From: Flavobacteriaceae bacterium
Lineage (GTDB): Bacteria; Bacteroidota; Bacteroidia; Flavobacteriales; Flavobacteriaceae
Assembly (NCBI GenBank): GCA_004762155.1
Contig: SIHP01000005.1
Coordinates: 1-64,000 of the forward strand
Direction of reading: 5' to 3'
DNA length: 64,000 bases
Shown here one piece after another: positions 2,831 to 30,798 of this stretch; the stretch's first letter is position 1; each line of letters starts with the position of its first letter. Below the pieces are notes generated by a model. That model was given only the letters and a program-made list of their open reading frames with translations. It did no database searches and had not been told where the DNA came from. Both the position numbers and the translations under genes were made by a program.

Positions 2831-2948
2831 CCGAGACCATTAAGTTTTTAATTTTCCGATACGCTTGTTTTTTATGACCGTTAGATATTCTAAATGGAAG
2901 TTGAACAAACAGCCAAACTAGCTCGATGAGTTGTGATAATTTTTTCAT
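2817..2948 (-). CDS. Possible 43-residue small protein
   Basis: A 43-codon frame starts with ATG at 2948 and ends at 2817, so its last codons overlap the 3' end of nadE in antisense. The product begins MKKLSQLIELVWLFVQLPFR, an amphipathic to hydrophobic helix, followed by a basic stretch (GHKKQAYRKIKN). An A/G-rich stretch precedes the start. This lies in the 190-base space between nadE and dnaG, which otherwise holds nothing I can name. It could be a membrane-associated microprotein or chance; the mixed composition, unlike random AT-rich sequence, is the main point in its favour. Confidence 0.35.
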   Translation of the reverse strand: MKKLSQLIELVWLFVQLPFRISNGHKKQAYRKIKNLMVSANLL

Positions 2949-3022
2949 AATTTTCTTCTTTCTTTTCGCAAGCTAAGATAGTAAAAAAAGAATGTCGTTT
3001 GAATCAATATGTTAAAAAACAG

Positions 3023-14572: not shown

Positions 14573-15919
14573 TTATCCTAATTCTTCTCTCATCATATCT
14601 AATCCTTCACGAATTATTTTTTGATGAGGCTGTTTAGATACACAAATAAATTCTGTTAAAGCGAAATCTTCTGGTGCAATTTCATAAGCACCTAAACCTT
14701 CCATTTCGTCAATGTCTTTGTACATACAAGCTTTTAATAATTGCATTGGAAAAATATCTAAAGGAAATACTTCTTCATATGCTCCTGTAACTACAAAGGC
14801 TCTATGTTCTCCGTTAGTATTTGTATTTAAATCGTATTTTTTCTTAGGGTTTAACCATGAAAAGGTTAACGCTCTTGTAGTAGAAATCTTGTTAAAAACT
14901 GGTTTATTCCATCCAAAAAGCTCATAATCGTCTCCTTCTGGAATAGCGGTTACTTGATTTTCATAATATCCTAAAAAACCATTCTCACCAACTTGTAAAC
15001 CACTTAATACATTTCCGCTTATTACACGTGCATTAGCTTCTTCTAAATTACCTTTTACTAAATCACTAATATTAGCTCCTGCTAAAGCAGTAACATATTT
15101 TGGTGTTTTAAATTTAGATCCAGTTAAAGCAATTGTACGTGTTGCATTAAATTTACCTGTTAAAAATAATTCTCCAATAACCACTAAATCTTGAGGTGTT
15201 ACCACCCAAACAACTTCTCCTTTGTTTATTGGATTAACTTGTGCTATTTGAGTACTTACATTACCTACTGGATGTGGCCCAGAAACATTATGTAGCTCAA
15301 CTCCATTTAAACCAGCTAATGGCGATTTTGAAGAAGCAACTGAAACATGTACCTTTCCTTCTGTTAACTTTGTTAACGCAGTTAACGCAGTTTGTAACTC
15401 GGCTTCCTTCCCTTTTAAAGTATAATCTAAATCAGCTGCTAAAGGAGCACTTGCATGTCCAGATACAAAAATAGCTTTCGGTGCTTGATTTGGATTGGCA
15501 ACAACATCATATGGACGTTGTTTTATAAATGGCCAACAACCTGAAGTAAATAAGTGGTTTTTCACTTCTTCTCCAGACATCACTGAGACATCTTTTGTAC
15601 CAAAATCCTCAAAAGCTTGTGTGCTATTTGCAGTGATTTTAATCTCTAATACTTTTCTTCGTGCTCCACGAACGATTTCTGTAACTTTACCACTTACAGG
15701 ACTTGGAAATAAAATACGCTCATCACTTTTATTGTAAAAAAGTGCTTGACCTGCCTTTACTTCTGTTCCTTCTTTTGCTAAAATTTTTGGAATAACGCCA
15801 TGAAAATCATCGGGACGGATTGCATACAAACTACCCAAAGGAAGATGAGTCGTTTCATGTTCTGCACTTCCTATGAGCTTAACATCAAGCCCTTTTTTTA
15901 TGCGGATGTCTTTTGACAT
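14573..15919 (-). CDS. nqrA: Na+-translocating NADH:quinone reductase subunit A
   Basis: NqrA is the soluble cytoplasmic subunit at the quinone-binding end of Na+-NQR. The 448-residue protein has the N-terminal barrel-sandwich region with a HLPLGSLYAIRP-type segment, then GHASAPLAADLDY near residue 155, and the conserved C-terminal part with ICVSKQPHQKIIREGLDMM. It is the first gene of nqrABCDEF. The order and the complete set of six genes indicate a working sodium pump, which fits a marine organism. Confidence 0.97.
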   Translation of the reverse strand: MSKDIRIKKGLDVKLIGSAEHETTHLPLGSLYAIRPDDFHGVIPKILAKEGTEVKAGQALFYNKSDERILFPSPVSGKVTEIVRGARRKVLEIKITANSTQAFEDFGTKDVSVMSGEEVKNHLFTSGCWPFIKQRPYDVVANPNQAPKAIFVSGHASAPLAADLDYTLKGKEAELQTALTALTKLTEGKVHVSVASSKSPLAGLNGVELHNVSGPHPVGNVSTQIAQVNPINKGEVVWVVTPQDLVVIGELFLTGKFNATRTIALTGSKFKTPKYVTALAGANISDLVKGNLEEANARVISGNVLSGLQVGENGFLGYYENQVTAIPEGDDYELFGWNKPVFNKISTTRALTFSWLNPKKKYDLNTNTNGEHRAFVVTGAYEEVFPLDIFPMQLLKACMYKDIDEMEGLGAYEIAPEDFALTEFICVSKQPHQKIIREGLDMMREELG

Positions 15920-16227
15920 AGAACTATATATTTGATTTTCTTAAAAACATGCAAATTTAAAAATTTTGAAAATGAGTTCTCCTTAAATATAATTTTATCT
16001 TGTTAAAAACACTTTATTTATATTTATTCTAAATAAACCTGTTTTGTTTTTGATAATTTTATCACCTTGAATATCTTTTTTTAATTATTTAAACACATTA
16101 ATTTGTCATATTAATAAAACTACTTCCTACTTCTTTCCCTGCTCTCATAAAAACAACTAACCAAAAAAACTTCCTTTTGTAAGTAAAGAGGTCTTATTTA
16201 GAAATAAAAAAATTGAGTTATACAGTC
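15920..16227. other. AT-rich intergenic region upstream of nqrA
   Basis: This 308-base stretch separates the secreted-protein operon from nqrA. Apart from the possible nqr -7 element at 15952-15959, I see no coding frame, RNA or clear terminator hairpin. The end of the secreted-protein operon must terminate here by something I cannot recognise. Confidence 0.5.
15952..15959 (-). promoter_or_regulatory. Putative -7 element for the nqr operon
   Basis: TAAATTTG on the minus strand fits TAnnTTTG and lies 32 bases before the nqrA start. I see no TTG at the expected spacing. Confidence 0.35.
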
Positions 16228-18243
16228 CTATTTCTTTAGAATTTGCTTTATAAAAACCTCTTCTCCTACAATAATTTTTAACACATAAGCTCCTGTACTT
16301 AAACCTGCTAATTGAGTTCTTGTTTTTATGTTTTTTTCTTGCTTAACAAGTTTTCCTGAAAGATTATAAATAAGAACCTCTATATATTCTTTTTCATTAT
16401 CTATTTTTATATTTAAAAAATTTTCAACTGGACAAGGGTACAAACTTATCTTATCACTTAAAGCAACATTATCAATTCCTGCTGTTGGATTTTCTATAAT
16501 CTCAAAAAAATCTTCTATAAATAGAATATTATAATTATCCCCCAAAGTTAAATCACCAATTTGAATGGTATACATTCCCACATCCTCTCCTTGTTCTCTT
16601 CTTAAACTTCCATTTAACGTATCATTTCCTATTAAATCTTCCGATAATACATAAGTCAATTCGGGATCTTCTGTTCCATAAACTTTTGTTAATGGATTTG
16701 CTGTAATTATTATTGGTTTAGCCGTAATTGATAAATAGGAACTTATAAAAGTAATATTGTATTTTGAATTTGATAAAGTTGAGGTTATTACATAATTACC
16801 TACATCTTCTCCTTCTTCTCTGTTTAAACTACCATTTAATGTTTCCCCTTCTAATAAATTTTCTGATAAAACATATGTTAACTCTGGATCTCCTGTCCCA
16901 TAAACTTTAGTTAATGGATTTGCTGTAATTGTTATTGGCTTTTTATTATTTAAAAAATATGCTTCAATATCTGTCTGTACTAATAAATTTCCAGAGACAT
17001 CTGTTATACTATTTGTTTCTTTAATATTTAATGATACTGCACCTAAAACTTCACTGATTCCAGAAACCTTCAATTTATATTGCATGCTTGAAACTTTTTC
17101 TATTGATAATATTTCTAACTCTTCTGATCCCTGTCCTGCTAATTCAAAATTAAAAACATCAACATTTAAAACCTCCTCATTAAAATCTATTAAAAAACTC
17201 CAAGAAGCTTCATCTTCATCTATAGAAACATTGGTTATTAATGGCTTAACAATATCATACGTTAAACTAATTTTATTAGAGGCTTCATTATAATTATTAT
17301 TTATATCCAGAACAGCTTCTTGAGGAACTTGTATACTAAATTCGCCTTGTGAAAGAGGTATTAAACTTACTTTATATGTTTTATCATCCTCTGTTATTAA
17401 AGATGAAATCATTGCGTTTTCTAATAACAAACTGGTTGTCTGAAAACCAGAAACTACCTCAGAAAAAGTAATATCTAAAGAAATAGGTACTGAATTGACA
17501 TTTGTCGACCCTGAATTAGATATAATGACTGTTATTGGCTCATTATTCACAAAATTAGCAACGGAAACTTCATATTCATTTAAATTTACTTCGTCTTCAG
17601 ATAGAACTTCATAAACAATTGGTCTTGTAAAATCTTTTGTTATACTTTCTGTTTCTTGCAAAATATTATTTACAAAAACCTTCGAATTATTACTTGTTGT
17701 AAACTCAGGTGTTAAATTAGTTAAATCTGTATTTTGTGGTAAAATAATATTTATTTTATCTGATAAAATTTCTGTTGAAATAGCGGACATCTCCATAAAA
17801 CCAAAAGATTTAAATATTGCCTCATTATTTAATTGTGAATTTGAAATACTATACGCCTGGAAAACACTTCCCAAACTTTCATCAATTTTAAATATTGCTG
17901 TTTTTTCAACCTCTTCAACAAACTGAGTAATACTATTGTATATTTTAAAATTAATAGTTTCATTATTTGCATTGGCATAAACAGTTAAAAACGTAACATA
18001 TTTATCTACACTTTCAATATATTCCACATTAGCAACTCCTCTTACTTCATCGCCTACAAACGCAAAAACTTTATCATTAACTGAAGTCAATACTGTTCCG
18101 TTAACACTTAAAAACGCAGTAAACGTCATACTATACTGATAATTGGCTGCATTTACTGACCAATCAGAAACCTGGCCTTGTACATTTTTATAAATCATAC
18201 AAAAAGTACTTATTAAAACTATTTTATATATAAATACTTTCAT
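16228..18243 (-). CDS. Secreted MBG-repeat protein with T9SS sorting domain
   Basis: The 671-residue protein begins with a signal peptide (MKVFIYK onward, cleavage expected near residue 23); an upstream ATG ten codons earlier would overlap the preceding gene and is less likely. Residues about 27-140 form the domain shared with its two upstream neighbours, with FAFVGDEVRG near its middle. Ig-like regions follow. Residues 436-509 and about 510-583 are two MBG repeats of the YGx type (ITANPLTKVYGT...DPELTYVLSE), visible also as a 222-base direct repeat. Residues about 590-671 are a type A sorting domain (LYPCPVENFLNIKI, then STGAYVLKI). T9SS would export and anchor it. The function is unknown; adhesion is a guess. 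Confidence 0.85.
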   Translation of the reverse strand: MKVFIYKIVLISTFCMIYKNVQGQVSDWSVNAANYQYSMTFTAFLSVNGTVLTSVNDKVFAFVGDEVRGVANVEYIESVDKYVTFLTVYANANNETINFKIYNSITQFVEEVEKTAIFKIDESLGSVFQAYSISNSQLNNEAIFKSFGFMEMSAISTEILSDKINIILPQNTDLTNLTPEFTTSNNSKVFVNNILQETESITKDFTRPIVYEVLSEDEVNLNEYEVSVANFVNNEPITVIISNSGSTNVNSVPISLDITFSEVVSGFQTTSLLLENAMISSLITEDDKTYKVSLIPLSQGEFSIQVPQEAVLDINNNYNEASNKISLTYDIVKPLITNVSIDEDEASWSFLIDFNEEVLNVDVFNFELAGQGSEELEILSIEKVSSMQYKLKVSGISEVLGAVSLNIKETNSITDVSGNLLVQTDIEAYFLNNKKPITITANPLTKVYGTGDPELTYVLSENLLEGETLNGSLNREEGEDVGNYVITSTLSNSKYNITFISSYLSITAKPIIITANPLTKVYGTEDPELTYVLSEDLIGNDTLNGSLRREQGEDVGMYTIQIGDLTLGDNYNILFIEDFFEIIENPTAGIDNVALSDKISLYPCPVENFLNIKIDNEKEYIEVLIYNLSGKLVKQEKNIKTRTQLAGLSTGAYVLKIIVGEEVFIKQILKK
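16470..16943 (-). repeat. 222-base tandem repeat encoding two MBG domains
   Basis: Two nearly identical nucleotide segments (for example 16681-16716 and 16907-16938) repeat with a 222-base period inside the secreted-protein gene, giving two 74-residue MBG units that keep ANPLTKVYGT and DPELTYVLSE. The high DNA identity suggests a recent duplication, or gene conversion between the copies. Confidence 0.8.
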
Positions 18244-18247
18244 ATTC

Positions 18248-19537
18248 TTAGTTTTGATATGTATTAAAAACACTATTTATCAACAAATTATTCGCTTTAT
18301 CTTTTATTGTATTTGAGGTTTTTATATGCAAAGGAACTACACCATAAAAATCTTCTATATTAGTAATATTTACGGTATATGTATAGTTGTTTTCTAATGT
18401 TATAGTAATACTTGCATTAGCAACACTTTCGAAATCTGATGAAGAAACACCTTCTACTTCTTCACTAAAAATCACTTCATATGTTAAAACATTACTTGTT
18501 GTTACTTCATTAATAGGATTTTTTCTTTTGATTGACACTACATAAGGATTTATCAAATCATAAATTAAGGACAGTTTATTTGATGGTGAATTCCCTTCTC
18601 CATTATAATTAAATATTTTATTTTCTAACACCTCTATACTAAATTCACCTTGTTGTATAGGAACTATTTGTAATTTATAATTTAATTCACTCTCTTCTTC
18701 TATAGATAAAACAATAGCATTGTTTAATGACAAACTACTTTTATTAAAAATAGTAATAACTTGATTTGTTTTTAAATTGACAAAAACAGGAGTTTTATTT
18801 ATATTAATACTCTCACTTGTTTCTAAAGCAATTATAGGTGGATTTTCACTTACTTGTTCTACCGAAACATTAACTTCAAAAGTTTTTAAAACGGCTTGAT
18901 TTTCTGACAAAAGACTATAAACAACTACATCTGTAAAATCTTGACTTGATTCTCCCGATATTTGTAGTGTATTATCTACAAAAAAACGAGCGCCGTTACT
19001 AATACTATATGTTGCAGAAAGACTCCTCAAGTCTGTGTCAGCAGGTACAATAATATTTATTTTATCATTTTCTATTACTTCTTCAATACTTGTAATTCCT
19101 AAAAAACTGTATGAATTTAAAACAACTTCATTACTTAACGCTGGACTTGCAATACTGTAAGATTGAAAAACATCTCCTAAACTACCATCAACACTAAAGT
19201 TCTCTGTTTTTGAAACCTCAACAATATTTTGATTTGTACTGTCATATATTTTAAAACTTAAAACCTCATCGCTTGTATTTGCATATACCGTTAAAAAAGC
19301 CACATACTTATTGTATCTAGAAACATAAACTAAATTTGAAACACCTCTAATTTCTTCGTTCACAAAAACAGCAACTTTATCTTCTGGAGAAGATAAAGTT
19401 GTACCATTTAAATTTAAAAACGCTGTAAAATTCATACTAAACTGATAGCTAGAAACATCAACAAACCATTCTGGGTCTTGTGCTTTAGCATTAAAAAAGC
19501 AAAAGCTTATTATTATAAAACAAACTATTTTACGCAT
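18248..19537 (-). CDS. Secreted paralogue lacking MBG repeats and sorting domain
   Basis: The 429-residue protein has a signal peptide (cleavage after about residue 19, FNAKAQ). It parallels the first 430 or so residues of the next gene in the operon: the shared domain at residues about 22-135 (VAVFVNEEIRG, then VAFLTVYAN), then Ig-like regions ending IKTSNTIKDKANNLL. It stops just where the paralogue begins its MBG repeats, and has no sorting domain. It should therefore reach the periplasm by Sec but has no visible T9SS signal. It may be a real short form or a truncated copy; the intact frame and tight spacing (2 bases after one gene, 4 before the next) favour a real gene. Confidence 0.8.
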   Translation of the reverse strand: MRKIVCFIIISFCFFNAKAQDPEWFVDVSSYQFSMNFTAFLNLNGTTLSSPEDKVAVFVNEEIRGVSNLVYVSRYNKYVAFLTVYANTSDEVLSFKIYDSTNQNIVEVSKTENFSVDGSLGDVFQSYSIASPALSNEVVLNSYSFLGITSIEEVIENDKINIIVPADTDLRSLSATYSISNGARFFVDNTLQISGESSQDFTDVVVYSLLSENQAVLKTFEVNVSVEQVSENPPIIALETSESININKTPVFVNLKTNQVITIFNKSSLSLNNAIVLSIEEESELNYKLQIVPIQQGEFSIEVLENKIFNYNGEGNSPSNKLSLIYDLINPYVVSIKRKNPINEVTTSNVLTYEVIFSEEVEGVSSSDFESVANASITITLENNYTYTVNITNIEDFYGVVPLHIKTSNTIKDKANNLLINSVFNTYQN

Positions 19538-19539
19538 CT

Positions 19540-22500
19540 TTATTTTTTTACTATTTTCTTAATAATCTTTTTTCCTGAAGAAGTTGTCAACTTTATCAAA
19601 TAAACTCCCCTTGCAAAATCTGACGTATCTATCGTCGTCTTACGCTCTGAAGTCACTTCTTGATAAATCTGGTTGCCTATTATAGAATAAATATCAATTT
19701 TTATAAATTCATCACTCCTTAAAACAGTATCAACAATAAAATTATCTGCAAAAGGATTTGGCTGCAACAATACCTCACCTAAAGACATTTCCTCTGATGA
19801 AAGAGTTTTTAAACCTAATGCTACCGGATTATTAATATCACCCATTACTTTATTATTTTCAAAAACAAAACTATAATGAAGGTCTACTAACTCACCATTA
19901 ATTGAAGTCATAAATTTCAACGTTTCTTCCTTATCACTATAAACAGTAATAAAACTTAACTTTTTGCCATGTATGTCTACAATTGGAGAAGTTCCTCTTA
20001 ACGTTCCTTTTTCATCATAAACAAGCACATCGGTGTAATCTCCATCAATTACAAGCTCAGCTATAATATTCATGTTCTCATTATACTTTAAAAAAGACAC
20101 ATTATTCTCCTTATAAGCGTCTTTGAAGCTAGTTACATACTTCGCTACTGTTCCTGAATTAGGATAATTAAAAACCTGAACTATTCCTGCTTTAAGCATA
20201 TACCCATTATTAGGTGTTAAATAACTCAAGGAACCACTCCAACCAGAGAATTCATCATAAATAGCAAAACTAAATTGATCTTTTATAACATCTCCATCAG
20301 CTGGATTGTATAAAGAAAATGCTTCCTCTAATTTTGTGCTTTTATGAATTGGGAAAGGCAACCAGTTCCAACCTTCATTAATTGTCAAGTTTATATCCGT
20401 TTCATCAACATCTTGCCCCCCTATTGTTAATGTATTCGCATTTAACAACTTAATTTTATACATACTTTTAGCTTCTATTGCTAATAAAGATCCATACCAA
20501 TCACCATTCTCATATTGTGTAAATAATTTTTGAGATTTTATCTGATCTCCCGACTCTAACGTTAATCCATCAAAAGTTGTTTTTATGCTGGTAAAATTAG
20601 CGTCTTCTACATAAGGTGAAAACCAAGTCCATCCTTCATTTAAGCTTATTGTTTGTTCTGAAAAAGAACCTGCAGAAAAAATTACTGAATTAGATTTTGA
20701 CCCCAAAACATCATTCTGTAAAAACGGCACATTTAGCTGAGCATCTATTGAAGAAGTTAATACCTTTCCATTAAGCGCATCCCAAATTTTAAAACTCACA
20801 CTTTCTCCACTAGAAACATTACTATAAATAGACAAATACACAAAGTAACTATCATAGTTTTCATCATAAGTCAAATATGCTTCACCTCTTGGCTCATCAT
20901 TAACGAAAGCACCTACTTTTGTATAGACATCTCTAGAAAACTGTTCATTAATTTTAATAGCACCTACTATATTCATACTTTTTGAATAATCAGGTTCGCT
21001 TACAGACCAATCAGGTGCTTCATTTAACACTCTTAAACTTAACTGTAACCTCTCATCTAAACCAAAATCTGTTTCTAAATATAAATCTTCTACATATTCT
21101 CCTATACTTAGTTCTTTATCAACTGTTGCTGTGATTATTACTCCATTACTTGGATCTAATGTTCCTAAAGATTCACTTAAAGTTAACCAATCTGGAATAT
21201 TTTTAATCTCAAACCTTTCTTCAACATTCCCTTTATTTAACACTGTTATTTCAAACTCATAAGAATCTCCCGAAACCTTTTCTATCTCAACAAGATCTTT
21301 ATTATCACCTACATACCACTCTATATTTTTTTTAGATACATATGCTGTCCATGTAACTGGTGAGGCTTGTCTATTTTCTGCGTCATCAAACAAATGATCT
21401 ACCGTTATATCTAATGTTTGATTTTCTAATATCGCCCAATCACTAACCTCTGGAGTTATAATAATTTCATCTCCATTAATCACTGAAGACACATCAAAAC
21501 TTAACAATTCTCTTGCTGGTTGCAAGCTTGGTGAATCTTCTGAATAATTAGATACTCCACTACTTAATCTAGTATTTGCTGAAATCATAGTTCCATCTGA
21601 CAATGCATGAAAATAAGCAGGTCCTTTTACATTGACTACTTCTGGACTATTCATACTCGCATACATTACTAAACCTAATGTAGTTGAAGGAATTTCTGTA
21701 TAACTATCTCGTTCAATTTGAACTAATGAACGTGCTGTATTCCAAAGTCTTATTTCTTCTAATTTACCCGTAAAATTTCTATCCACAGTTTCTTCACCAG
21801 TTTCATTGATATGACCTCTAGCTCCAATCCAAAACTTACTACCTGAAACACCTCCGATATTAGTAACAGAATGTGATGACACTAATCCGTTATCAAGATA
21901 AGTATTTAACGCTCCTGTACGCCTTACAACTATAGCCACATGATGCCATTTATCATCTGCAATACTATTTTCTGTAAGTTCGTAAGAAAACCCTTCGTTA
22001 TTAAAAATCAACTTTCCATTTGCATCTAATTCTACAGACCATTTATTACGTTTACCGCTAGACTGCACTACATCATCTTCTGTTCCTCTTCCATTTGAAA
22101 TTAATCCGGCAGCAGTATTACTTGATGTTTTAACCCAAAATGAAAGCGTAACATCCATTTCATCATCTATCTGCTTTACTCCTCCATATGTTGAAAAGTC
22201 ATTCAAATCTAACTCTAAATATTCATTCCCATTAAACTCATAACTTGTGGTTTTAGGACTTATGTCCCATCCTGTATTGACAACAGCATGAATAAATCTT
22301 GCCAAATCATTTGCAATAGCACCACGTCCTTCATTCATTTTCCAATACCCAACTAAATCACGTTCCGACCCTGTATATTGTTCGTACAAACTAGCAACAG
22401 ACTCTGCAAGTGAAATAGGCTTAGTCCACATACGTAAATCATGTATATTCCCTATAAAACTGCTACCACCTAGCGTTAAAGTATTTGAATTTGTAAAATT

Positions 22501-25500
22501 CATTTCTTCTACACTTACTACCTTTAACTCGGTACTATCTTCATAAATGCGCAATTCTCCATCTCCTTCATCGTATGTTAATGTATAATGATGAAATAAA
22601 TCATCTTGTAAAATTACTCCTTTTACAGTTTCTCCTCCTAAAGTCCAAACCAATTCTCCTCCAGCTAGTGTTAAACTAAACCCGTTTTCTTGTTCCATAA
22701 TAATAGCATCTCCTATTGTTTTATTATGCATCCAAAACTCAATACTATAATCACCCGTAAAAACATTTGTTTTTTCTATCGTCATATTATTTCCTGTTCC
22801 ATTAAAAGCAACAGATACTGAATGATTAATAGGCATTTGATTTGTTTCTGCTACGATTTCTATTTTACTTATAGCGCTATTATAATTAATTGGCTCACTA
22901 AATTGTAAACGCAAATCATCCCCTGCACTCAAAATTCCATCGGCAGGAGAAGGTGTCCCAAACTGTTGAGGTTTAGTTAAGTCTATAGTTCCTGAAATTA
23001 CATCGGATACATATTCTGTGCCATCTATACAATAAGAAATAGCTCTTATTTCGTATTCACTATCATCCAAACCTAAGCCTGCTATATCAAAATCATATGA
23101 GATAGTAATATCTTCAATCGAACTATTTTTATCTTCTCCATTTTCTTCAGCTATTGCTAAATAATCAACCACTTCTCCTTCATTTGATGTAAATGGAGCT
23201 TTATAATAGGTATGTAATCTATTCCATGAAGAACTTGTAGTTTTTCTGTATTGTAAATCTATCTTTTTAAAAGTACTATAGTCTGGTCTAAATTCTGATA
23301 ATTCTACTTTTAAAGTATTCACAGTACCATCATCATTATAAATATCTTCATTATTTACCACCCAACCATCAAAAGGAGCACTCACTGTAACACTTGAACA
23401 AGAAGGTACAAATGTTGCTGACAACTCAATACTATCCGAAGGGTTATCTCCATCACATAAAGACTCCAAAACAAGAACTATCCCTTCGTATTTAAATTGA
23501 TCTTCGAGTGATTTTTCCATTGTAATCGTATAATACACACGTTCTCCTTTAGGAATATTTACAATATTACCATCATCAGCTATATTTAATATTACATTAT
23601 ACGGATTTGATGCTGTATCTACTTTTAGATTAAAATCGGTATCCTCAGATGCTCCAACTCCGTTATTTTCTAAAGCAAGTGTAAATTCTGCTTTTCCATC
23701 TTCTGGAACATTTGTAATATTTGTTACTTCTGCACTTATTACAGGGTCCTCTACCTTTTGTGTAGCATAATTTAAAGTAAAACCATTAGCTTCACCGTCT
23801 TCCTCAAACTCTTCTATAGCTGGTAAACTAGGGGCTTCAACCAATTCAGGCTCACTTAAACTACAAGAAGACGACGCTATTTTACATTGTTCATACTCAT
23901 CTTTCTTTATCAAATAAGTATTATATATATCTAAAGCTTCATAATAAGGCTTATAAATATTAGTATACGAATCTTCATCTAAGAAATAAGCGTTAGATGC
24001 ATCTTCATAAGGACATGAAGTACGTCCTCCAATAGTAGTAAAAATAGGACCATTACCATCAAAGGCATTAATTACATTTACACTCAATATATTTGAATCA
24101 TCATTATCCATTAAGGTATAACTAATAACTGAAGTAGCTTCTTCCTCAACTCCAACACTTCTAGCAGACGATTCATTAAATGCTACTGTAAAAAACTTAC
24201 TTGTACCTACCCCATTTAGCTCAAAACCATTAACCCCTGTAAATTCTTCATCTGCTGAAAAACTATACTCACTTGCACGACTAGATACCGATGCTATTTC
24301 AAAACTTTTTGTAAACTCACCAACTCCTGCATCTAAAGAAATATTTTCTGAAAAACGATTTAATAATTCTTCTTCTAGCATCTCTAAATCATTTAATGCA
24401 TCCGTCAAATCAGAATCTGTATCATAACCACCTAACTCATCTATTTTAATTTGAGTTTCAATTTTGGCTTTATCTTTGGCTATAGAAAGTTTTAAACCAG
24501 CAAGAAAACCTTCTGGGTTTTCATTAGATTCATACTTAGCATACTCATTTTTTAAAATACTCTCTCTCCATAATTCTATCTGCTGTTCATAGTGTCTTAA
24601 TGACAAGACACCTTCTTCGTTAGCTGTTAGAACACCATTATTTATGTTAGAAATAATTAATTCTAACTCTGGAATAAGTGTTTCTAGTATGTGTTTTTGA
24701 CTATATATAAAAAAAGTACTAGAAGCTTCTTCAGCAAACCTAAATGCTTTTACTTTTGATATAAATAAAGGAACCTTTTCACCTGAAGAATTTAATTTTA
24801 ATAATTCTATGCCTACAGAATTATCCTCATCAAAATTATTTCTATTAATTTGAATATTGTCATAAGAACCATAAAAATAGTTTTTAGAATTACCTATATA
24901 TAAATCTCCATCCGCCCCTACATAATCAGGTTCAGCACTCGTAGATATTACCTGATTAAAAGTATATGTTTTAGTTAAACTAACCCCATCAGTTGAAGAT
25001 GTTTCTAAAGATACACCTGTTTCTGCATCATTTGTAAAATCAGTCGCAATAACAGGACCTAACAAACCTCCTCCTATTTTAAAATCCGTACCTAAACTAA
25101 CCGTAAGCCCTGCTGAATTCGCTGCTGCATTTGTAAAACTACTTTCTGTAGTAAAACTAACACTTGTTCCTGCTTCTATAGACGCAAAACTATTCGTTCC
25201 TGGAGGATCTCTTAAAATGATAGCTGGAACATCTGGAGCCGCAGTAACAAACGTTTGACTACCATCTGACTTACCTCCAAGTATTAACCCTCCCGGATTG
25301 TATCCAATAGCCTCTGTATCTATACCATTTACTCTATAATTAATAGAAAGTGTTTTTAAAAATGGTGCAATAATTCCAGGAATTCCTCCTCTAAACGTAT
25401 AGATTGATTTGCTTTTATCATCCTCATCATACACTATGCCTTCACTATCTTCTAAAGCTAAGTTATTATTAATAATAAACTCACCATCTAAAACAGGTAC

Positions 25501-28374
25501 CTTAGCTACAGTAACTTCATCTTTAGTGTCATAATTACTATATAACTCATAGGTTTCTAAATCGATATAATAAGATTGAGCTTGTTTATAAATAGCTAAT
25601 TCTTCACCATTCAATGTGGCATCTTTTGCTTCGAAAACCTCATCTTCTATTTCAATTTGTTCTTCTGATGTTTGCCTTGTAACAAACAATTGAGGTGAGG
25701 AGCGATAAATAAAACTTTTTTCAAAATGATAAGGTACTGACTCCAAATCAATCTCATTTCCTACCGAAAAAGTAGTTATGATTGCTAATGGTACTTCACT
25801 TAAATTTAAGCTTTCATTAGCACTTAAAAAGTTATCACTTATATTATCTTCATCATTAACAATTGTAACCCCGTAACTTGTACTTGTTTTTTCTATTACA
25901 TACTGTAAAGGCGCCAACTCTCTTCTATATTCTCCTGAATCTTCATTCGTTGTTAGAATAACATCTCCTCCTTCATGGCTTAATTTTATGGTAGCAATAC
26001 CTATATTATTAATAGCACTTATTGCTACTTTTTCTTCATCAGTAGTCCCCTCATCAAACGGATAATAATAAACTCCATCACCACCAAAACCAATAGGTTT
26101 AGCTCCTTCTACGGAGCCTCCAACTACTTTACCCACTAGTGTAACTTTGGTTTCATCTAAAAAAGTAACCGATGATTCTTGGTGTTCAAAAAATTCAAAA
26201 TTTATTTTATGCTTCTTTGTAATAAAGGCTATTTCTTCATCCGTTAAGGCATTACCACTTACACGTTCTTCTTGCGCTAAAGCATCTTGGGTAAGCATTG
26301 GAAAACGACCTCCATATGTAAAGTTATGGTTCTCTTTTTTCACCTCTATATAATGATTTCCTATAGGAACTTCTATTTCAAAGTTTCCGTTTTCATCCGT
26401 AGTTACTGGCAAGCTCTCATCATCCAAAACAAGTTCTCCATCAATATATACATTTGCACCTTCTACTCCTATATTAGGCATATCTACAATTGTATTTATG
26501 GTATCTCCTGATTGGTAATCTCCTTTTTGATAGGTCTTACTACTTTCGTTTGTATCGGTTACTGTATATTCATTATACCCAGTCTCATTTACCTGTAAAA
26601 CATCTGGCACATTAATACTACCATCATTATTTTTAATTGGATCAAAAGTCCCTACTAAATCCATACGTGCTGTTCCTTTAAAAATAAACGAAGAAACATC
26701 TTCAAAATCTACTTGATTAACAACTTTAGCCCCATCACCTAAGAATATTGATGCTTGATTAGGACTAAACTGATGCACACCAAAAGATGGTGTAATATTG
26801 TATGATTCACCTGTACCTGCATAAGGTATAGACGCTATTATATAATTACCATTTTCATCGGTAACTCCTACAACTCCTAACTGGTTACTAGTAGGCCTAT
26901 CATCCGAGCTACTAGTCCATGCACTTTTATATAAAAAGGCTTCATTTTTATTAAAATCAAAACCTTTTGCAGATAAATCATAAGCATATGAACCATTCTG
27001 TTCGTCAATGCGCAAATACATTAACAAGTTCGACTCTGTACCACTTAAATAACGTTTAAAATCCTGACGAATTTCATCTGTACTTAAAACATCTTGCCAT
27101 AAACGAACTTCATCTATAATTCCATTTAATTTATCTGCAATAGCTATACTATTAAATGTAGCATCTGCAGGATACGTATAGTTAGAAACTGTAATTAATT
27201 CTGGAATTTTCCTTTCATCTTCATTATTTTTTTCTTCTTCTACTACTATTATTTCATCAATATATTCATCGCTTAACAACCGCCCATTTAAATACAACTT
27301 AGGGCTTTCATTTTCATTTAAAACAATTGAAAGATGTATAAAATTTTGAGAGATTTCTGAAATAGGATTTAAAATATCATCTCCCTTACCGTCTACATCC
27401 CCTGTTGGGTAAAACTTTTTTAAAGTAACTTTATGTAATTCACTGCTATTAGTAGCATTCCCTACAGTAAAATCAAGCGCTTTTTCATCTCCATCATCCA
27501 CTAAAGCTACTTTGGTATATACATAATCATTAGAAGCACTACCTGTAGCTGGTAATGTTTCTTGTAATTTTAACCACGTAAAGTTTGCTGTTTCGGGCAT
27601 ACGTAACCATGATTGAAAGGTTGCTTTGGCAGTAATCTCTTTATTCAAGTACTGAACTTCTAGCCTTCCTTCATCAGAAACTAAAACACTACTTCTTACA
27701 CTTATATCATCTCCTTGGGGTTCAGCCCTAACAATTACATCTTTCACAGGACTATCTCCAGAAAAACTGACATTACCTGTAACTACTGCTGTAGGGTTTC
27801 TATATCCTATACCTGTAATATAATTAGTGTACCTATTTGCTATTACAGAAACACCTTTAGCATATACCAAATATTCATATAGTAAAACCCCTTCTATAGC
27901 TGTATCAGAATATGTGTAAACATCATTACTTAAGGTTACGATTGGTTTACCAAAAGACTCATGCACTATGGTTGTTCCGTCGTTATCTAATTGAAAATAC
28001 TCAGCACTTACAGTCGCTGTATAAGGTCTTCTATAAATAAGTATATTTTCAATATCTTCTATATTTTCTCCAATAGACCAATCTAACTGAACTCTATCTC
28101 CATAATACCCTTTAGAAACCTCAAATCCAGCTTCATAAAAAGTAGACAATTTATACAAAACACCATAAGGAAAACCCAAATAAACATTTACATCTCCGCT
28201 ATACGAGTTAGGAGGCAATACTCCACCTACTTGCATTTGCATATGCACCCCCTTGGCTGTTGATGAATAATCTATCGCTGCATTTCCTAAAAAAGGGTGA
28301 TTTTCACTTTGTTCTTGCGCCGTGACAAAAAGAGTCATTAAACACATACATAAAACATGTAGTATTTTTTTCAT
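19540..28374 (-). CDS. Giant LamG-domain surface protein with T9SS sorting domain
   Basis: This 2944-residue protein has a signal peptide (cleavage near residue 19, FVTAQ). Seen in order: a carboxypeptidase-regulatory-like Ig segment near residue 195; a LamG-like jellyroll at about 240-460 (IIDEVRLWQD); another Ig-like segment at about 640-695; a Glu/Lys-rich predicted coiled coil at about 1210-1350; two more LamG-like domains at about 1850-2040 (IHDLRMWTKP) and 2040-2260 (LEEIRLWNTA); the domain shared with the two downstream proteins at about 2450-2560; two NEGWxW repeats at about 2565-2740; a shorter copy of the shared domain at about 2750-2855; and a type A sorting domain at about 2862-2944 (LQPNPFADNFIV, ARGVYLIKL). 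T9SS should display it on the surface. Binding of glycans or surfaces is plausible for LamG but not shown. Confidence 0.88.
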   Translation of the reverse strand: MKKILHVLCMCLMTLFVTAQEQSENHPFLGNAAIDYSSTAKGVHMQMQVGGVLPPNSYSGDVNVYLGFPYGVLYKLSTFYEAGFEVSKGYYGDRVQLDWSIGENIEDIENILIYRRPYTATVSAEYFQLDNDGTTIVHESFGKPIVTLSNDVYTYSDTAIEGVLLYEYLVYAKGVSVIANRYTNYITGIGYRNPTAVVTGNVSFSGDSPVKDVIVRAEPQGDDISVRSSVLVSDEGRLEVQYLNKEITAKATFQSWLRMPETANFTWLKLQETLPATGSASNDYVYTKVALVDDGDEKALDFTVGNATNSSELHKVTLKKFYPTGDVDGKGDDILNPISEISQNFIHLSIVLNENESPKLYLNGRLLSDEYIDEIIVVEEEKNNEDERKIPELITVSNYTYPADATFNSIAIADKLNGIIDEVRLWQDVLSTDEIRQDFKRYLSGTESNLLMYLRIDEQNGSYAYDLSAKGFDFNKNEAFLYKSAWTSSSDDRPTSNQLGVVGVTDENGNYIIASIPYAGTGESYNITPSFGVHQFSPNQASIFLGDGAKVVNQVDFEDVSSFIFKGTARMDLVGTFDPIKNNDGSINVPDVLQVNETGYNEYTVTDTNESSKTYQKGDYQSGDTINTIVDMPNIGVEGANVYIDGELVLDDESLPVTTDENGNFEIEVPIGNHYIEVKKENHNFTYGGRFPMLTQDALAQEERVSGNALTDEEIAFITKKHKINFEFFEHQESSVTFLDETKVTLVGKVVGGSVEGAKPIGFGGDGVYYYPFDEGTTDEEKVAISAINNIGIATIKLSHEGGDVILTTNEDSGEYRRELAPLQYVIEKTSTSYGVTIVNDEDNISDNFLSANESLNLSEVPLAIITTFSVGNEIDLESVPYHFEKSFIYRSSPQLFVTRQTSEEQIEIEDEVFEAKDATLNGEELAIYKQAQSYYIDLETYELYSNYDTKDEVTVAKVPVLDGEFIINNNLALEDSEGIVYDEDDKSKSIYTFRGGIPGIIAPFLKTLSINYRVNGIDTEAIGYNPGGLILGGKSDGSQTFVTAAPDVPAIILRDPPGTNSFASIEAGTSVSFTTESSFTNAAANSAGLTVSLGTDFKIGGGLLGPVIATDFTNDAETGVSLETSSTDGVSLTKTYTFNQVISTSAEPDYVGADGDLYIGNSKNYFYGSYDNIQINRNNFDEDNSVGIELLKLNSSGEKVPLFISKVKAFRFAEEASSTFFIYSQKHILETLIPELELIISNINNGVLTANEEGVLSLRHYEQQIELWRESILKNEYAKYESNENPEGFLAGLKLSIAKDKAKIETQIKIDELGGYDTDSDLTDALNDLEMLEEELLNRFSENISLDAGVGEFTKSFEIASVSSRASEYSFSADEEFTGVNGFELNGVGTSKFFTVAFNESSARSVGVEEEATSVISYTLMDNDDSNILSVNVINAFDGNGPIFTTIGGRTSCPYEDASNAYFLDEDSYTNIYKPYYEALDIYNTYLIKKDEYEQCKIASSSCSLSEPELVEAPSLPAIEEFEEDGEANGFTLNYATQKVEDPVISAEVTNITNVPEDGKAEFTLALENNGVGASEDTDFNLKVDTASNPYNVILNIADDGNIVNIPKGERVYYTITMEKSLEDQFKYEGIVLVLESLCDGDNPSDSIELSATFVPSCSSVTVSAPFDGWVVNNEDIYNDDGTVNTLKVELSEFRPDYSTFKKIDLQYRKTTSSSWNRLHTYYKAPFTSNEGEVVDYLAIAEENGEDKNSSIEDITISYDFDIAGLGLDDSEYEIRAISYCIDGTEYVSDVISGTIDLTKPQQFGTPSPADGILSAGDDLRLQFSEPINYNSAISKIEIVAETNQMPINHSVSVAFNGTGNNMTIEKTNVFTGDYSIEFWMHNKTIGDAIIMEQENGFSLTLAGGELVWTLGGETVKGVILQDDLFHHYTLTYDEGDGELRIYEDSTELKVVSVEEMNFTNSNTLTLGGSSFIGNIHDLRMWTKPISLAESVASLYEQYTGSERDLVGYWKMNEGRGAIANDLARFIHAVVNTGWDISPKTTSYEFNGNEYLELDLNDFSTYGGVKQIDDEMDVTLSFWVKTSSNTAAGLISNGRGTEDDVVQSSGKRNKWSVELDANGKLIFNNEGFSYELTENSIADDKWHHVAIVVRRTGALNTYLDNGLVSSHSVTNIGGVSGSKFWIGARGHINETGEETVDRNFTGKLEEIRLWNTARSLVQIERDSYTEIPSTTLGLVMYASMNSPEVVNVKGPAYFHALSDGTMISANTRLSSGVSNYSEDSPSLQPARELLSFDVSSVINGDEIIITPEVSDWAILENQTLDITVDHLFDDAENRQASPVTWTAYVSKKNIEWYVGDNKDLVEIEKVSGDSYEFEITVLNKGNVEERFEIKNIPDWLTLSESLGTLDPSNGVIITATVDKELSIGEYVEDLYLETDFGLDERLQLSLRVLNEAPDWSVSEPDYSKSMNIVGAIKINEQFSRDVYTKVGAFVNDEPRGEAYLTYDENYDSYFVYLSIYSNVSSGESVSFKIWDALNGKVLTSSIDAQLNVPFLQNDVLGSKSNSVIFSAGSFSEQTISLNEGWTWFSPYVEDANFTSIKTTFDGLTLESGDQIKSQKLFTQYENGDWYGSLLAIEAKSMYKIKLLNANTLTIGGQDVDETDINLTINEGWNWLPFPIHKSTKLEEAFSLYNPADGDVIKDQFSFAIYDEFSGWSGSLSYLTPNNGYMLKAGIVQVFNYPNSGTVAKYVTSFKDAYKENNVSFLKYNENMNIIAELVIDGDYTDVLVYDEKGTLRGTSPIVDIHGKKLSFITVYSDKEETLKFMTSINGELVDLHYSFVFENNKVMGDINNPVALGLKTLSSEEMSLGEVLLQPNPFADNFIVDTVLRSDEFIKIDIYSIIGNQIYQEVTSERKTTIDTSDFARGVYLIKLTTSSGKKIIKKIVKK

Positions 28375-28397
28375 TTTTATATGTTTTAGTTAAGAAC

Positions 28398-29276
28398 TTA
28401 TAGTTTTATAATGTAATTCACACCAAAGTTTACTGGACGTGATTCGTCACTTCCACTATCATCTGTTGAACCATCAATAGTAATTTCATGCGTATGAGCT
28501 CCATCTGTTGATGTATAAAGGTCACTTCCATTATTAACCCATTTTGTAGTAGAATTACCAAGACCATCTTGATATGATTTTGTACCCATACTAGTATTTA
28601 CAAAATGTCTATGCGCCCCATCATTATTTGTTTCCCCTGTTAAAGTTACATCATGGTTATGCTTTTTATTAGCGTCTTCTTGTGTTTCAAGTAAACTTGG
28701 CCCCACATATTTAGCATCTAAAGAACTAGTACCCGTACCTCTTAAAAACAAACCTTGTAAATCTGGTGTATTATTACCTATAAGTGCTATTAATTTTGTT
28801 GCTCCAGTTATAGCTGTTAATTCTTGCCCATTACAAAGCACCCAACCTCTTGGTGCTTCTGTCCCTGTAAAGGGCAAAATAGATCCCGTTGGCACACCAT
28901 TTCTTGCATAATGTGCATAAGGCGTGTATTGTAAGACTTGGTTATAAACTTCTATATCCTCTGAGTTATAGTTTATAGAAACTTTTAATTTTAAATTATC
29001 TATAGCGAAGTCTATATCATCAAAATTACTTGTCGCAACTGGAGTACCTGACCTAATAATGTGAGAAAACACTCCAAAATCATCTGTTTTAATAGCTTGT
29101 GTTTCTGCATAAAGTTCCGTGCCATCTTCTTCTGTAATACTAAATCTAAATGTTAAATAGGTAGCTACAATAGCAGAACTTGAATTATCTCTTGCAATAC
29201 CTTGTAAAGAAATCCCCTGTGCTAATGAAATTGTTGTGAGTAAAAAAAATGATAGTAGAAAATAATAATTTTTCAT
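28398..29276 (-). CDS. Secreted protein with phage tail collar domain
   Basis: The 292-residue protein has a signal peptide (cleavage near residue 20, SLAQ). Residues about 22-125 form the N-terminal domain common in secreted tail-fibre-like proteins of Bacteroidota (LQGIARD, then FRFSITEEDG and DDFGVFSHII). Residues about 130-190 are a tail collar domain (TGSILPFTG, APRGWVLCNGQEL, DLQGLFLRG). A His-rich region follows (KKHNHDV, GAHRHF, GAHTHEI), and the chain ends SRPVNFGVNYIIKL, the usual collar-protein end. It has no sorting domain. It is the first gene of the four-gene operon, 23 bases before the giant gene. No phage genes are nearby, so this is a cellular secreted protein rather than a prophage relic. 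Confidence 0.85.
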   Translation of the reverse strand: MKNYYFLLSFFLLTTISLAQGISLQGIARDNSSSAIVATYLTFRFSITEEDGTELYAETQAIKTDDFGVFSHIIRSGTPVATSNFDDIDFAIDNLKLKVSINYNSEDIEVYNQVLQYTPYAHYARNGVPTGSILPFTGTEAPRGWVLCNGQELTAITGATKLIALIGNNTPDLQGLFLRGTGTSSLDAKYVGPSLLETQEDANKKHNHDVTLTGETNNDGAHRHFVNTSMGTKSYQDGLGNSTTKWVNNGSDLYTSTDGAHTHEITIDGSTDDSGSDESRPVNFGVNYIIKL

Positions 29277-29577
29277 AATTTAAATTTTATATGTGTGTGG
29301 TATTACGCCTCTATAATGACAGAAGCATCTTTTGAAGTAAAACTACACAGAAACCCTATTCGAAAAACATATAGAAGCTAGACAAAAAGTCACAAATAGT
29401 ATTTTTTCAGTTACAAAACTCACCATTTGGTAAATAAATATTATTTTAACAATTAAAATACACTCTAAAAAAAACTCATCTACAAACGAATAAGTTTCAG
29501 TAACCATTTGTGTATTTAAAACAAACACATCAAAAATCTTTATAAAAGGATTACTTTTGATAAAAATTTTATATTAT
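29277..29577. other. Divergent intergenic region
   Basis: This 300-base region separates the secreted-protein operon from the plug-protein gene. It carries a clear -7 match for the rightward gene at 29552-29559. I found no TAnnTTTG match at a sensible distance for the leftward operon. A 61-codon open frame on the minus strand here looks like chance. Confidence 0.5.
29552..29559 (+). promoter_or_regulatory. -7 element for the plug-protein gene
   Basis: TACTTTTG fits TAnnTTTG exactly and lies 18 bases before the ATG at 29578, leaving a short leader. This position also argues against a TTG start at 29557, which would lie inside the promoter. Confidence 0.5.
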
Positions 29578-30798
29578 ATGCATAAAAAGACAATTGTATT
29601 TTTTTTATTTTTATTTATCTATCTAAGCATACAATCTCAGAATATTAAAACGGTACAACTTACACCTGTTAATAGCAATTCTTTTCAACCAATTGTTAAA
29701 CTTGGTAATGTTTTAGAATTATCTTTTGATGATTTGGATGCTGACAATAAAGAATACCAGTATGAGATTAAACACATGACGAAAGACTGGAAACCTAGTA
29801 ATTTAAGTCCAAACCAGTATATAAATGGATATGAAAAAGACTACATCATCAATACAACAAACTCTTTTAATACACTACAAGACTATACTCATTATACTAT
29901 AAGAATACCTAATGATAACACTAGAATTACAAAAAGTGGAAATTATTTAATTTCTATATATGATGAAGATGATGAAATTGTATTTACAAGACGTTGTATT
30001 TTTTACGAAAACCTAACCACTACAGGAGTTGCCGTATTTAGAAGCAGAGATTTAAAAACTAGTAATACACAACAAACTGTTCAACTCACTTTAGATCATT
30101 CTAGCTTTTCATTTACAAACGCAAACCAAGAAGTTAATGTAGCAATCTTTCAAAATAATGATTGGTCAACATTAATAAGTAACTTAAAACCGTTGTTTTT
30201 TAAACCAAATCAATTAATTTATAATTACACAGATAAAACAAATTTCTGGGGAAATAATGAATACTTAAATTTTGATACAAAAAGTATAAGAAATGCTAAT
30301 TTAAACATTTCTCATATAGAACAAAAAGATCTTTTCAATACATACCTCTATACTAATGAACCTAGAGCTACTAAATTATACTCTTACAATCCAGATATAA
30401 ATGGTGAATTTAAGATACGTTCTTTAGAGGCTGATGATGAAAATACAGAAGCTGACTATAGCTTAGTTCATTTTTCACTTGATGCTTCAAACATCAGTTC
30501 TGATAAAAACATTTTTGTTTATGGATCTTTTAATAACTACAAAACTTTTGAAGAAAACAAAATGACTTTTAATCCAACAAAAGACAAATATGAATGTGTT
30601 ATTCTTTTAAAACAGGGCTTTTATAATTATAGTTTCGCTACAGTAAACAAAGAATCTAAACCTAACCTTCATGAGATAAATGGTTCTTTTTACGAAACTG
30701 AAAATGAATACACTGCTATTGTATATTACAGTGGTATTGGTGAAATTTACGATAGAGTAATTGGCGTTGGAAAAGGCTTCTTTAATCAAAATAGGTAA
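29578..30798 (+). CDS. DUF5103 family protein, T9SS plug type
   Basis: From ATG at 29578 the protein is 406 residues with a signal peptide (hydrophobic stretch, cleavage near IQSQ at about residue 21). The body matches DUF5103: LSFDDLDADNKEYQYEIKHMTKDW near residue 45, a VFRSRDLKTSNTQQTV segment in the middle, and a C-terminal carbohydrate-binding-like fold with FVYGSFNNY. A member of this family in Flavobacterium johnsoniae was found as the plug of the SprA translocon. Whether this orthologue plugs SprA here is inferred. It diverges from an operon of presumed T9SS cargo, which makes a T9SS role attractive. Confidence 0.85.
   Translation: MHKKTIVFFLFLFIYLSIQSQNIKTVQLTPVNSNSFQPIVKLGNVLELSFDDLDADNKEYQYEIKHMTKDWKPSNLSPNQYINGYEKDYIINTTNSFNTLQDYTHYTIRIPNDNTRITKSGNYLISIYDEDDEIVFTRRCIFYENLTTTGVAVFRSRDLKTSNTQQTVQLTLDHSSFSFTNANQEVNVAIFQNNDWSTLISNLKPLFFKPNQLIYNYTDKTNFWGNNEYLNFDTKSIRNANLNISHIEQKDLFNTYLYTNEPRATKLYSYNPDINGEFKIRSLEADDENTEADYSLVHFSLDASNISSDKNIFVYGSFNNYKTFEENKMTFNPTKDKYECVILLKQGFYNYSFATVNKESKPNLHEINGSFYETENEYTAIVYYSGIGEIYDRVIGVGKGFFNQNR

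What the first reader, a model, noticed from the sequence alone, without database searches (positions are those of the whole stretch)
16228..29276. Four-gene secreted-protein operon with a giant LamG protein: best candidate for an undescribed surface system
Seen: four leftward genes with gaps of 23, 2 and 4 bases encode a collar-domain protein, a 2944-residue multidomain protein, a 429-residue protein and a 671-residue protein. All have signal peptides, and two end in T9SS sorting domains. Known: LamG and MBG domains are common in surface adhesins, and T9SS exports proteins with such C-terminal domains. Inferred: the four products form one surface fibre or adhesin complex, with the collar protein possibly a tip or cap. 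I know of no named system with this gene set.
Basis: partly seen in the sequence, partly recalled or inferred. Interest (0 to 1): 0.75.

Follow-up and report, generated by a model that had tools for sequence, protein, structure and literature searches.

The report
Conserved Bacteroidota fibre-and-giant surface operon
Four neighbouring genes of a marine bacterium form a widely conserved but apparently undescribed set that probably builds a cell-surface structure, combining a phage-type fibre tip with a giant exported protein whose outer part was swapped in from another bacterial lineage.

Summary
The four genes and gaps are as described. That they form one system is strongly supported: on named Bacteroidota contigs a collar-fibre gene lies directly upstream of the giant in 51 of 53 testable loci and a partner gene directly downstream in 54 of 55. 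Partners share an unannotated domain ("SDM") with the giant's end; SDM occurs three times in this genome, all in this operon. In a class sample 23 of 26 SDM genomes carry the giant's central domain, against 30 of 395 overall. The collar protein resembles T4 gp12/gp37 tips and its tip is its most variable part. New here: the window's giant is a natural chimaera, residues ~60-2410 being nearest an Aquimarina giant, both ends nearest Polaribacter. The operon is an insertion between nqrA and the T9SS plug gene, 118-484 bp apart in 49 of 55 genomes. Best reading: a surface recognition/adhesion apparatus exported at least partly by T9SS, its outer part exchanged at least once. Assembly, adhesion and target are inferred. 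Four open-access literature searches named no such system.

The parts
28398..29276 (-). Gene 1: secreted collar-fibre protein, 292 aa; first gene of the operon
   Evidence: PF07484 1e-8; PHROG tail collar fiber 3.7e-24; profile of 8 homologues matches T4 gp37 tip 2e-7 and gp12 6.3e-7 in PDB; weak Bdello_MAT_N at residues 8-99
28449..28736 (-). Variable fibre tip of gene 1 (residues 181-276) with HxH pairs H206/H208, H222/H224, H261/H263
   Evidence: these His columns are invariant in the 8-member alignment; tip mean pairwise identity 0.28 against 0.44 (N-domain) and 0.57 (collar) in 28 members
19540..28374 (-). Gene 2: giant exported protein, 2944 aa
   Evidence: LamG_3 in two stretches and T9SS type A tail
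21145..28197 (-). Exchanged block of the giant, residues ~60-2410, nearest an Aquimarina giant; borders approximate
   Evidence: trees and sliding identity, BLASTP by segment
23995..25287 (-). Central domain of the giant (residues 1030-1460; DPPG...TSCPYE), two long hairpins around a helical insert
   Evidence: AF2 model of residues 565-1660, mean pLDDT 81.3; in 30 of 395 genomes of the class at E<=1e-5; no Pfam family in the window protein
21715..22161 (-). Best LamG_3 stretch of the giant (residues 2072-2220)
20671..21030 (-). SDM domain of the giant
   Evidence: profile match 3.3e-54; match to the downstream proteins first seen
19549..19761 (-). T9SS type A sorting domain of the giant
18248..19537 (-). 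Gene 3: 429-aa secreted SDM partner without sorting domain
   Evidence: an SDM gene is directly downstream of the giant in 54 of 55 testable loci
19112..19483 (-). SDM domain of gene 3
16228..18243 (-). Gene 4: 671-aa SDM partner with Ig/MBG stalk and T9SS tail
17806..18183 (-). SDM domain of gene 4
16570..16959 (-). Two MBG repeats of gene 4 (168 nt, 79% alike, spacing 222)
   Evidence: orthologues of 521, 1120 and 1196 aa differ mainly in this stalk
16240..16443 (-). T9SS type A sorting domain of gene 4
15920..29556 (.). Inserted segment that carries the operon, between nqrA (14573-15919, -) and the T9SS plug gene (29557-30798, +)
   Evidence: gap between the matches 118-484 bp in 49 of 55 genomes with both on one contig; 13.6-15.8 kb and filled by this operon in 3

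Best explanation
The operon is an insertable surface-recognition (adhesion) cassette. Shown here by sequence: conserved gene order, a shared SDM domain, fibre-tip homology, two T9SS tails, chimaerism and insertion at a fixed site. Inferred: the giant is exported by the type IX system and held at the surface by its C-terminal domain; its string of beta-sandwich and LamG domains forms the projecting body; the collar protein is a short trimer whose phage-type tip binds a target glycan or cell surface; SDM domains in the giant's end and in the partner proteins dock these parts at the cell surface. In many lineages the fourth gene is a small lipoprotein (possible anchor); in the window's Polaribacter lineage a second SDM protein with an MBG stalk and its own T9SS tail stands there. 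The giant's outer part was exchanged at least once between lineages while its SDM/sorting end stayed of the type of the local partners.
For: Order: collar upstream 51 of 53, SDM gene downstream 54 of 55; fourth gene small in 36 of 53, second SDM gene in 7 (all titled Polaribacter), other in 2, none close in 8. SDM: 3 of 3 matches in the own genome lie in this operon although 92 T9SS-tail matches exist there; 11 of 117 relatives have SDM; in the class sample 23 of 26 SDM genomes have the central domain, Fisher p 4.7e-28, and 76 of 85 SDM hits lie within 10 kb of one. Fibre tip; variable tip. In locus L141 SDM is fused to a lipoprotein signal next to a collar and a giant gene. Acidic motif after the lipobox in 29 of 38 small genes by a loose pattern of mine, like the lipoprotein export signal of PMC5080379 (12 passages read). 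Histidine kinase/response regulator or AraC-type genes within 4.5 kb upstream in 25 of 45. Chimaera with the SDM end kept local. SDM partner distances follow the giant's C-terminal part, not its outer part (partial r 0.58 against 0.03).
Against: No function, localisation or contact was tested. Loci were collected with the giant as query, so the order counts are conditional on it, and the species are related. Distant giants (22-31% identity, L050-L054; also L117, L120) lack the collar gene and L115 the SDM gene. Collar and 429-aa protein have no T9SS tail, so their way out is unexplained. Nine of 85 SDM hits lie away from a listed central-domain hit (four of the nine are in G117, where only the 4 best candidates were scored for the central domain), and 7 of 30 genomes with the central domain lack SDM. 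Only one exchange event is shown: a scan of 57 loci for further discordant cases flagged only L057b, the partner in this same event. The co-variation is confounded by linkage, as each partner gene adjoins the corresponding end of the giant gene. In 14 of 45 loci no upstream regulator was seen, in 6 only a TPR protein without a DNA-binding match; the window has none. Ten of 54 collars have fewer than three HxH. LamG and collar folds do not prove binding.
Confidence: 0.5

Rival explanations
1. Contact apparatus that perforates or kills another cell: the fibre tip recognises the target and the giant's central domain inserts its two long hairpins as a membrane-piercing element, on a T9SS-anchored protein.
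For: AF2 gives strands of 19-24 residues and hairpins of low confidence around a helical bundle; windows over these hairpins are the five most Ser/Thr-rich of the giant, hairpins 0.28-0.30 against a window mean of 0.16, often with GGG at the first tip; collar N-domains show weak relation to predator Bdellovibrio fibre proteins, 12 of 28.
Against: No aerolysin, ETX/MTX or MACPF family among the 11 families matched by 13 central domains at E<=1; one member touches CEL-III C-terminal, from a haemolytic lectin (nature recalled), at an insignificant 0.13. Beta moment of the hairpins is not exceptional, 87th and 94th percentile. No specific structural match was listed for this part, which the searches barely tested. 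No enzyme or immunity gene is recognised in the operon.
Confidence: 0.12
2. Polysaccharide-capture system for feeding: LamG domains and fibre tip bind algal glycans, and local regulators switch it on with the substrate.
For: LamG_3 domains; TPR histidine kinase + LuxR-type regulator, or propeller-AraC regulator, upstream in part of the loci, types known from glycan loci (recalled).
Against: The cassette genes themselves show no SusC/SusD, hydrolase or lyase family; flanking genes were not scanned for these. Regulator type is not conserved and the window has none.
Confidence: 0.2
3. Coincidental neighbours: unrelated T9SS cargo genes that happen to be adjacent here.
For: The genome has 92 T9SS-tail matches, several in clusters.
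Against: 51 of 53 and 54 of 55 conserved adjacencies; shared domain restricted to the operon in this genome.
Confidence: 0.02

Closest known systems
Bdellovibrio mosaic adhesive trimer (MAT) fibres (PMC10769870; start of abstract, 12 passages and one short section seen)
   Same: Secreted fibre with a constant N-terminal domain and a diversified C-terminal tip; weak N-domain match
   Different: Below the curated cutoff (25.5 against 60 bits); short, 292 aa; beside a giant T9SS protein; tip is of T4 gp12/gp37 type
T4 short tail fibre gp12 and gp37 tip
   Same: Collar plus HxH-bearing C-terminal tip, profile E 6.3e-7 and 2e-7
   Different: Bacterial secreted protein with signal peptide and another N-domain, in an operon with T9SS proteins
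T9SS surface adhesins of gliding Bacteroidota (SprB, RemA; recalled)
   Same: Large, T9SS-type C-terminal sorting domain; tail of the model matches the RemA CTD (8gl6, Z 10.5, rmsd 1.8, 75 aligned)
   Different: Non-repetitive, with dedicated collar and SDM genes; link to gliding not tested
TCS/AraC-regulated glycan-capture (Sus-like) loci (recalled)
   Same: Possible surface glycan binding and, in part of the loci, local regulators
   Different: No SusCD pair or enzyme among the cassette genes

Membership tests
T9SS type A cargo | C-terminal Por_Secre_tail/TIGR04183 above cutoff | tested here: met
   Giant 42.8 bits and 671-aa protein 38.3 bits against cutoff 23
T9SS type A cargo | Same tail in collar and 429-aa protein | tested here: not met
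   No match; these two are not filed as T9SS cargo
T9SS type A cargo | T9SS-dependent appearance outside the cell | not testable with these tools
   needs mutants and fractionation
Phage gp12/gp37-type fibre tip | Collar domain followed by HxH-bearing tip | tested here: met
Phage gp12/gp37-type fibre tip | Metal-bound trimer | not testable with these tools
   metal role of HxH is recalled, not from a call
MAT superfamily | N-terminal MAT domain at curated cutoff | tested here: not met
   25.5 bits against 60 for the window protein; 12 of 28 homologues at E<=0.01, best 6e-11: related at most
MAT superfamily | Surface location and role in prey contact | not testable with these tools
   needs experiments
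Beta pore-forming toxins (aerolysin/ETX/MACPF) | Recognisable family profile or fold | tested here: inconclusive
   No such Pfam family at E<=1 in 13 members; fold lists dominated by Ig domains
Alpha-2-macroglobulin/complement | Overall fold | tested here: inconclusive
   Foldseek E 1.4e-9 but TM 0.08 and rmsd 48.9: only a string of Ig-like domains
Surface-exported lipoprotein (fourth gene in other lineages) | Lipobox followed by acidic export motif | tested here: inconclusive
   29 of 38 by a loose pattern of mine; no such gene in the window operon
Anti-phage defence system | PADLOC model match | tested here: not met
   0 families for all four proteins at E<=0.01

The most novel reading that the evidence does not exclude
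A cell-surface contact machine of Bacteroidota not yet described: a phage-derived fibre tip recognises another cell, a T9SS-displayed giant with an exchangeable ~2350-residue cartridge and two insertable hairpins acts on it, and SDM domains are a private docking code that lets new cartridges be plugged into the local base.
Probability: 0.12. Interest if true: 0.9.

Novelty: new variant of a known kind. Interest (0 to 1): 0.62.

Why it matters
The cassette recurs in several families of Bacteroidota, and two of its key parts (SDM and the central domain) matched no Pfam family in the searches made. The natural chimaera suggests which part of the giant is the local base and which can be replaced, and so gives direct tests of how T9SS-displayed complexes are assembled and retargeted. 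It also places a phage-type fibre tip in a conserved bacterial surface operon next to a T9SS giant.

Tried and rejected
Fusogen lead: model residues 977-1096 (giant 1541-1660) match HAP2 and archaeal Fsx1 at Z 9.7-10.5, but only over one Ig-like domain (103-110 residues aligned), tied within 1 Z with complement and other Ig domains; rejected. Sequence profile of giant residues 565-1660 against PDB: nothing below E 1.5. Foldseek against viral models: low-TM matches only at the top of the list. Beta-moment scan to support pore hairpins: not exceptional. Naming relatives with the giant sequence alone: 26 stretches matched a pattern, none confirmed; the alignment scan gave 69 loci. Promoter scan: no excess, 76 against 75.1 expected. 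Composition of the inserted segment lies within the range of its surroundings. Papers: 'LamG domain'+'type IX secretion'+'Tenacibaculum', 'tail collar'+'LamG'+'Bacteroidetes', 'tail collar'+'type IX secretion' and 'LamG domain-containing'+'T9SS'+'Polaribacter' returned 0 papers each; one search listed 12 of 686 papers, mostly on T9SS or outer-membrane biology (listing only).

Both fold jobs went to giant residues 565-1660 and 2262-2944; SDM and the collar protein were not folded alone, and no pair was modelled. The fold lists tested mainly Ig domains, so no claim is made that SDM or the central domain has a new fold.
Full report
Observation. The four genes exist with the stated coordinates, lengths and gaps. 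Domain content is as claimed in substance, except that MBG repeats belong to the 671-aa protein. The genome (4.69 Mb, 47 contigs) has 92 matches to the T9SS tail, so two tailed neighbours alone would be unremarkable.

Where it comes from. The window's genus is Polaribacter by inference: contig C7 of same-genus genome G060 has the same length, 507,832 bases, as NZ_VANR01000003.1, Polaribacter aestuariivivens, and the two giants are sisters.

Conservation of the set. In the window's genus, seven further giants (in G037, G063, G029, G021 twice, G040, G060) have a collar gene directly upstream and an SDM-type gene directly downstream on the same strand, 7 of 7. Five more distant giants (L050-L054; 22-31% identity) have no collar gene there. 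A profile scan of named genomes gave 69 loci, with titles such as Polaribacter, Aquimarina, Lutibacter, Flavobacterium, Winogradskyella, Leeuwenhoekiella, Psychroflexus, Cyclobacterium, Lunatimonas, Pleomorphovibrio and Pedobacter (Flavobacteriaceae, Cyclobacteriaceae and Sphingobacteriaceae; family names recalled), unclassified MAGs, and a Prevotella MAG at 25% identity (L115). They hold 64 ORFs with the central domain; 7 split or truncated ones were dropped, leaving 57 of 2600 aa or more. Where at least 1.2 kb of flank is held, a collar gene is next upstream in 51 of 53 (median gap 11 bp) and an SDM gene next downstream in 54 of 55 (median gap 16 bp); the exceptions are L117 and L120 (no collar) and L115 (no SDM gene). 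The loci were found through the giant, so these numbers are conditional on it. The converse: of nine collar homologues with E below 1e-39, own copy included, eight lie beside a giant; the ninth, in G002, lies 8.7 kb from an SDM gene. The tenth, in G041 (2.8e-23, residues 6-172), was not examined.

The fourth position varies. Of 53 testable loci, 36 have a small gene there (35 of them lipoprotein-like by eye, many ending in DFELVE or similar), 7 a second SDM gene (all seven contigs titled Polaribacter), 2 another gene, 8 nothing close. The window has the second type; other Polaribacter cassettes have the first (L080, and G037). The stalk of this fourth protein varies: 521, 671, 1120 and 1196 aa.

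SDM, the shared domain. About 120 residues near the giant's end match the N-terminal parts of both downstream proteins. Pfam gave no family for it at E 0.1. In the whole own genome there are three matches, all in this operon. Of 117 relatives, 11 have SDM at E<=1e-5; ten of these had a giant-type match, the eleventh (G085) was not resolved. In 395 genomes of the class, 26 have SDM and 30 the central domain, 23 have both (Fisher p 4.7e-28, not corrected for kinship, own genome included); 76 of 85 SDM hits lie within 10 kb of a central-domain hit, 9 do not, four of these in G117, where the central-domain search scored only 4 of 24 candidates. In L141 SDM sits directly behind a lipoprotein-type signal, next to a collar gene and a 2102-aa giant. 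This makes SDM look like a private base or docking domain; binding is inferred.

The collar protein. A profile of eight homologues matches another short tail fibre (5.1e-14, collar part), the T4 gp37 tip (2e-7) and gp12 (6.3e-7) in the PDB. Three HxH pairs are invariant among these eight; 10 of 54 collars from named loci have fewer than three HxH. Twelve of 28 homologues match the Bdellovibrio MAT N-terminal model at E<=0.01, the window protein at 25.5 bits against a cutoff of 60. In 28 members (27 of the 54 plus the window) the tip is the least conserved part (mean pairwise identity 0.28, gap fraction 0.15) against 0.44 for the N-domain and 0.57 for the collar; over 27 loci its distances follow the giant's only weakly (rho 0.28, against 0.82 for the N-domain). 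That is the pattern of a receptor-binding tip, though saturation would also lower the correlation.

The giant. In the 69 giants aligned the median length is 2858 aa, range 2631-3530; those from named loci were pre-selected at 2600-3300 aa, so the narrow range is partly selection. TRF finds one short array in the operon, inside gene 4, and none in the giant. AF2 of residues 2262-2944 (mean pLDDT 85.4) is nearly all beta and ends in a T9SS tail close to that of RemA. AF2 of residues 565-1660 (mean pLDDT 81.3) shows beta domains and a central domain with long strands, a helical insert and two hairpins of low confidence. Windows over the hairpins are the five most Ser/Thr-rich, but their beta moment is ordinary and no pore-former family was significant. 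The central domain also occurs in other proteins: ORFs with it in the class sample run from 463 to 5698 aa, some without SDM.

A natural chimaera. Trees by segment (FastTree local supports) join the window and its sister L056 with the Aquimarina giant L057b for residues 160-1050 (1.0), 1051-1640 (0.98) and 1641-2400 (1.0), but with Polaribacter giants for the SDM domain (0.93), residues 2571-2944 (0.97) and residues 1-140 (0.79, then 0.93). Sliding identity changes sides near residues 40-60 and near 2410-2420; the 1-140 segment spans the left border, which is therefore the less certain one. BLASTP by segment, free of the multiple alignment, agrees: segments 60-700, 700-1500 and 1530-2400 score 835, 828 and 1164 bits to L057b against at most 416, 404 and 602 to the other Polaribacter giants tested (L056 apart), while for 1-45, 2445-2570 and 2571-2944 Polaribacter giants lead (11 subjects). 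Collar and first SDM protein of the window group with Polaribacter. So about four fifths of the giant, its outer part, was exchanged, while signal peptide, SDM and sorting end are of the local type. L057b is the nearest relative in hand, not a proven donor. A scan of 57 loci for other discordant giants flagged only L057b, so one event is shown, not a habit.

Co-variation. In 57 loci, distances of the SDM partner follow the giant's C-terminal part (partial r 0.58 given the outer part, permutation p 0.001) and not the outer part (0.03, p 0.29). Collar distances follow the outer part (0.41, p 0.001) more than the C-terminal part (0.18, p 0.002). Without the two chimaeras the four values are 0.46, 0.05, 0.43 and 0.02 (no permutation). 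Because each partner gene adjoins the corresponding end of the giant gene, linkage can cause the same pattern; it is support, not proof, of contact.

Insertion site. nqrA and the T9SS plug gene (PF17116) are divergent neighbours with 118-484 bp between the matches in 49 of 55 genomes (own included) in which both lie on one contig. The gap is 13.6, 14.7 and 15.8 kb in G000, G021 and G029, which hold this operon there (in G029 in the opposite orientation and with a response regulator and kinase-like pair), 3.1 kb in G016 and 10.2 kb in G004; in G071 the genes are far apart. In G004 the site holds a different 3093-aa protein that ends like a T9SS cargo, so the site has taken up surface-protein genes more than once.

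Regulation. Within 4.5 kb upstream, 25 of 45 testable cassettes have relatives of a histidine kinase plus LuxR-type response regulator (11), a propeller-AraC hybrid (7), an AraC protein (6) or a mixture (1); 6 more have only a TPR protein without DNA-binding match, and 14 have none that my queries saw. The window has none of these directly upstream: the divergent plug gene is there.

Mechanism and verdict. Shown by sequence: one conserved system; a shared, system-linked domain; a phage-type fibre tip; two T9SS-tailed proteins; one exchange of the giant's outer part; insertion at a fixed site. Inferred: surface assembly, docking by SDM, target binding by the tip and LamG domains. I hold adhesion/recognition most likely (0.5), glycan capture 0.2, a perforating contact apparatus 0.12. 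The kind (a T9SS-displayed surface recognition apparatus) is known; this gene set, its SDM domain and the chimaera were not found described in the four searches of an open-access library.

Noticed in passing
L143:1306-10587: In genome G004 the same nqrA-plug site holds a 3093-aa repetitive (QSDGKILIAD-type) protein that ends like a T9SS cargo: the site looks like a hotspot for surface-protein genes.
   Followed up: partly
window 19372-19401, strand -: A 13-pair stem with U-rich tail inside the start of the 429-aa gene, like an intrinsic terminator; 5 such sites found in the region against 3.4 expected by chance.
   Followed up: no
L051, L052, L053, L054: Distant giants (2915-2978 aa ORFs, 22-23% identity) in two genomes, two copies each, with another pair upstream (182-192 aa and 205-333 aa) instead of a collar gene.
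   Followed up: partly
L057:445-22853: Tandem pair of complete cassettes in an Aquimarina contig; the second giant is the nearest relative of the window's exchanged block.
   Followed up: partly
L130, L131, L132, L135: The central domain also occurs without a detected SDM in five proteins of ~860-2170 aa, three of them with a GEVED domain and three with a T9SS tail: a mobile module.
   Followed up: partly
L138:6829-12235: A 1417-aa SDM protein is followed by a PorP/SprF gene (PF11751 4e-46), which suggests another T9SS export type in that lineage; L139 looks similar but was not scanned.
   Followed up: no
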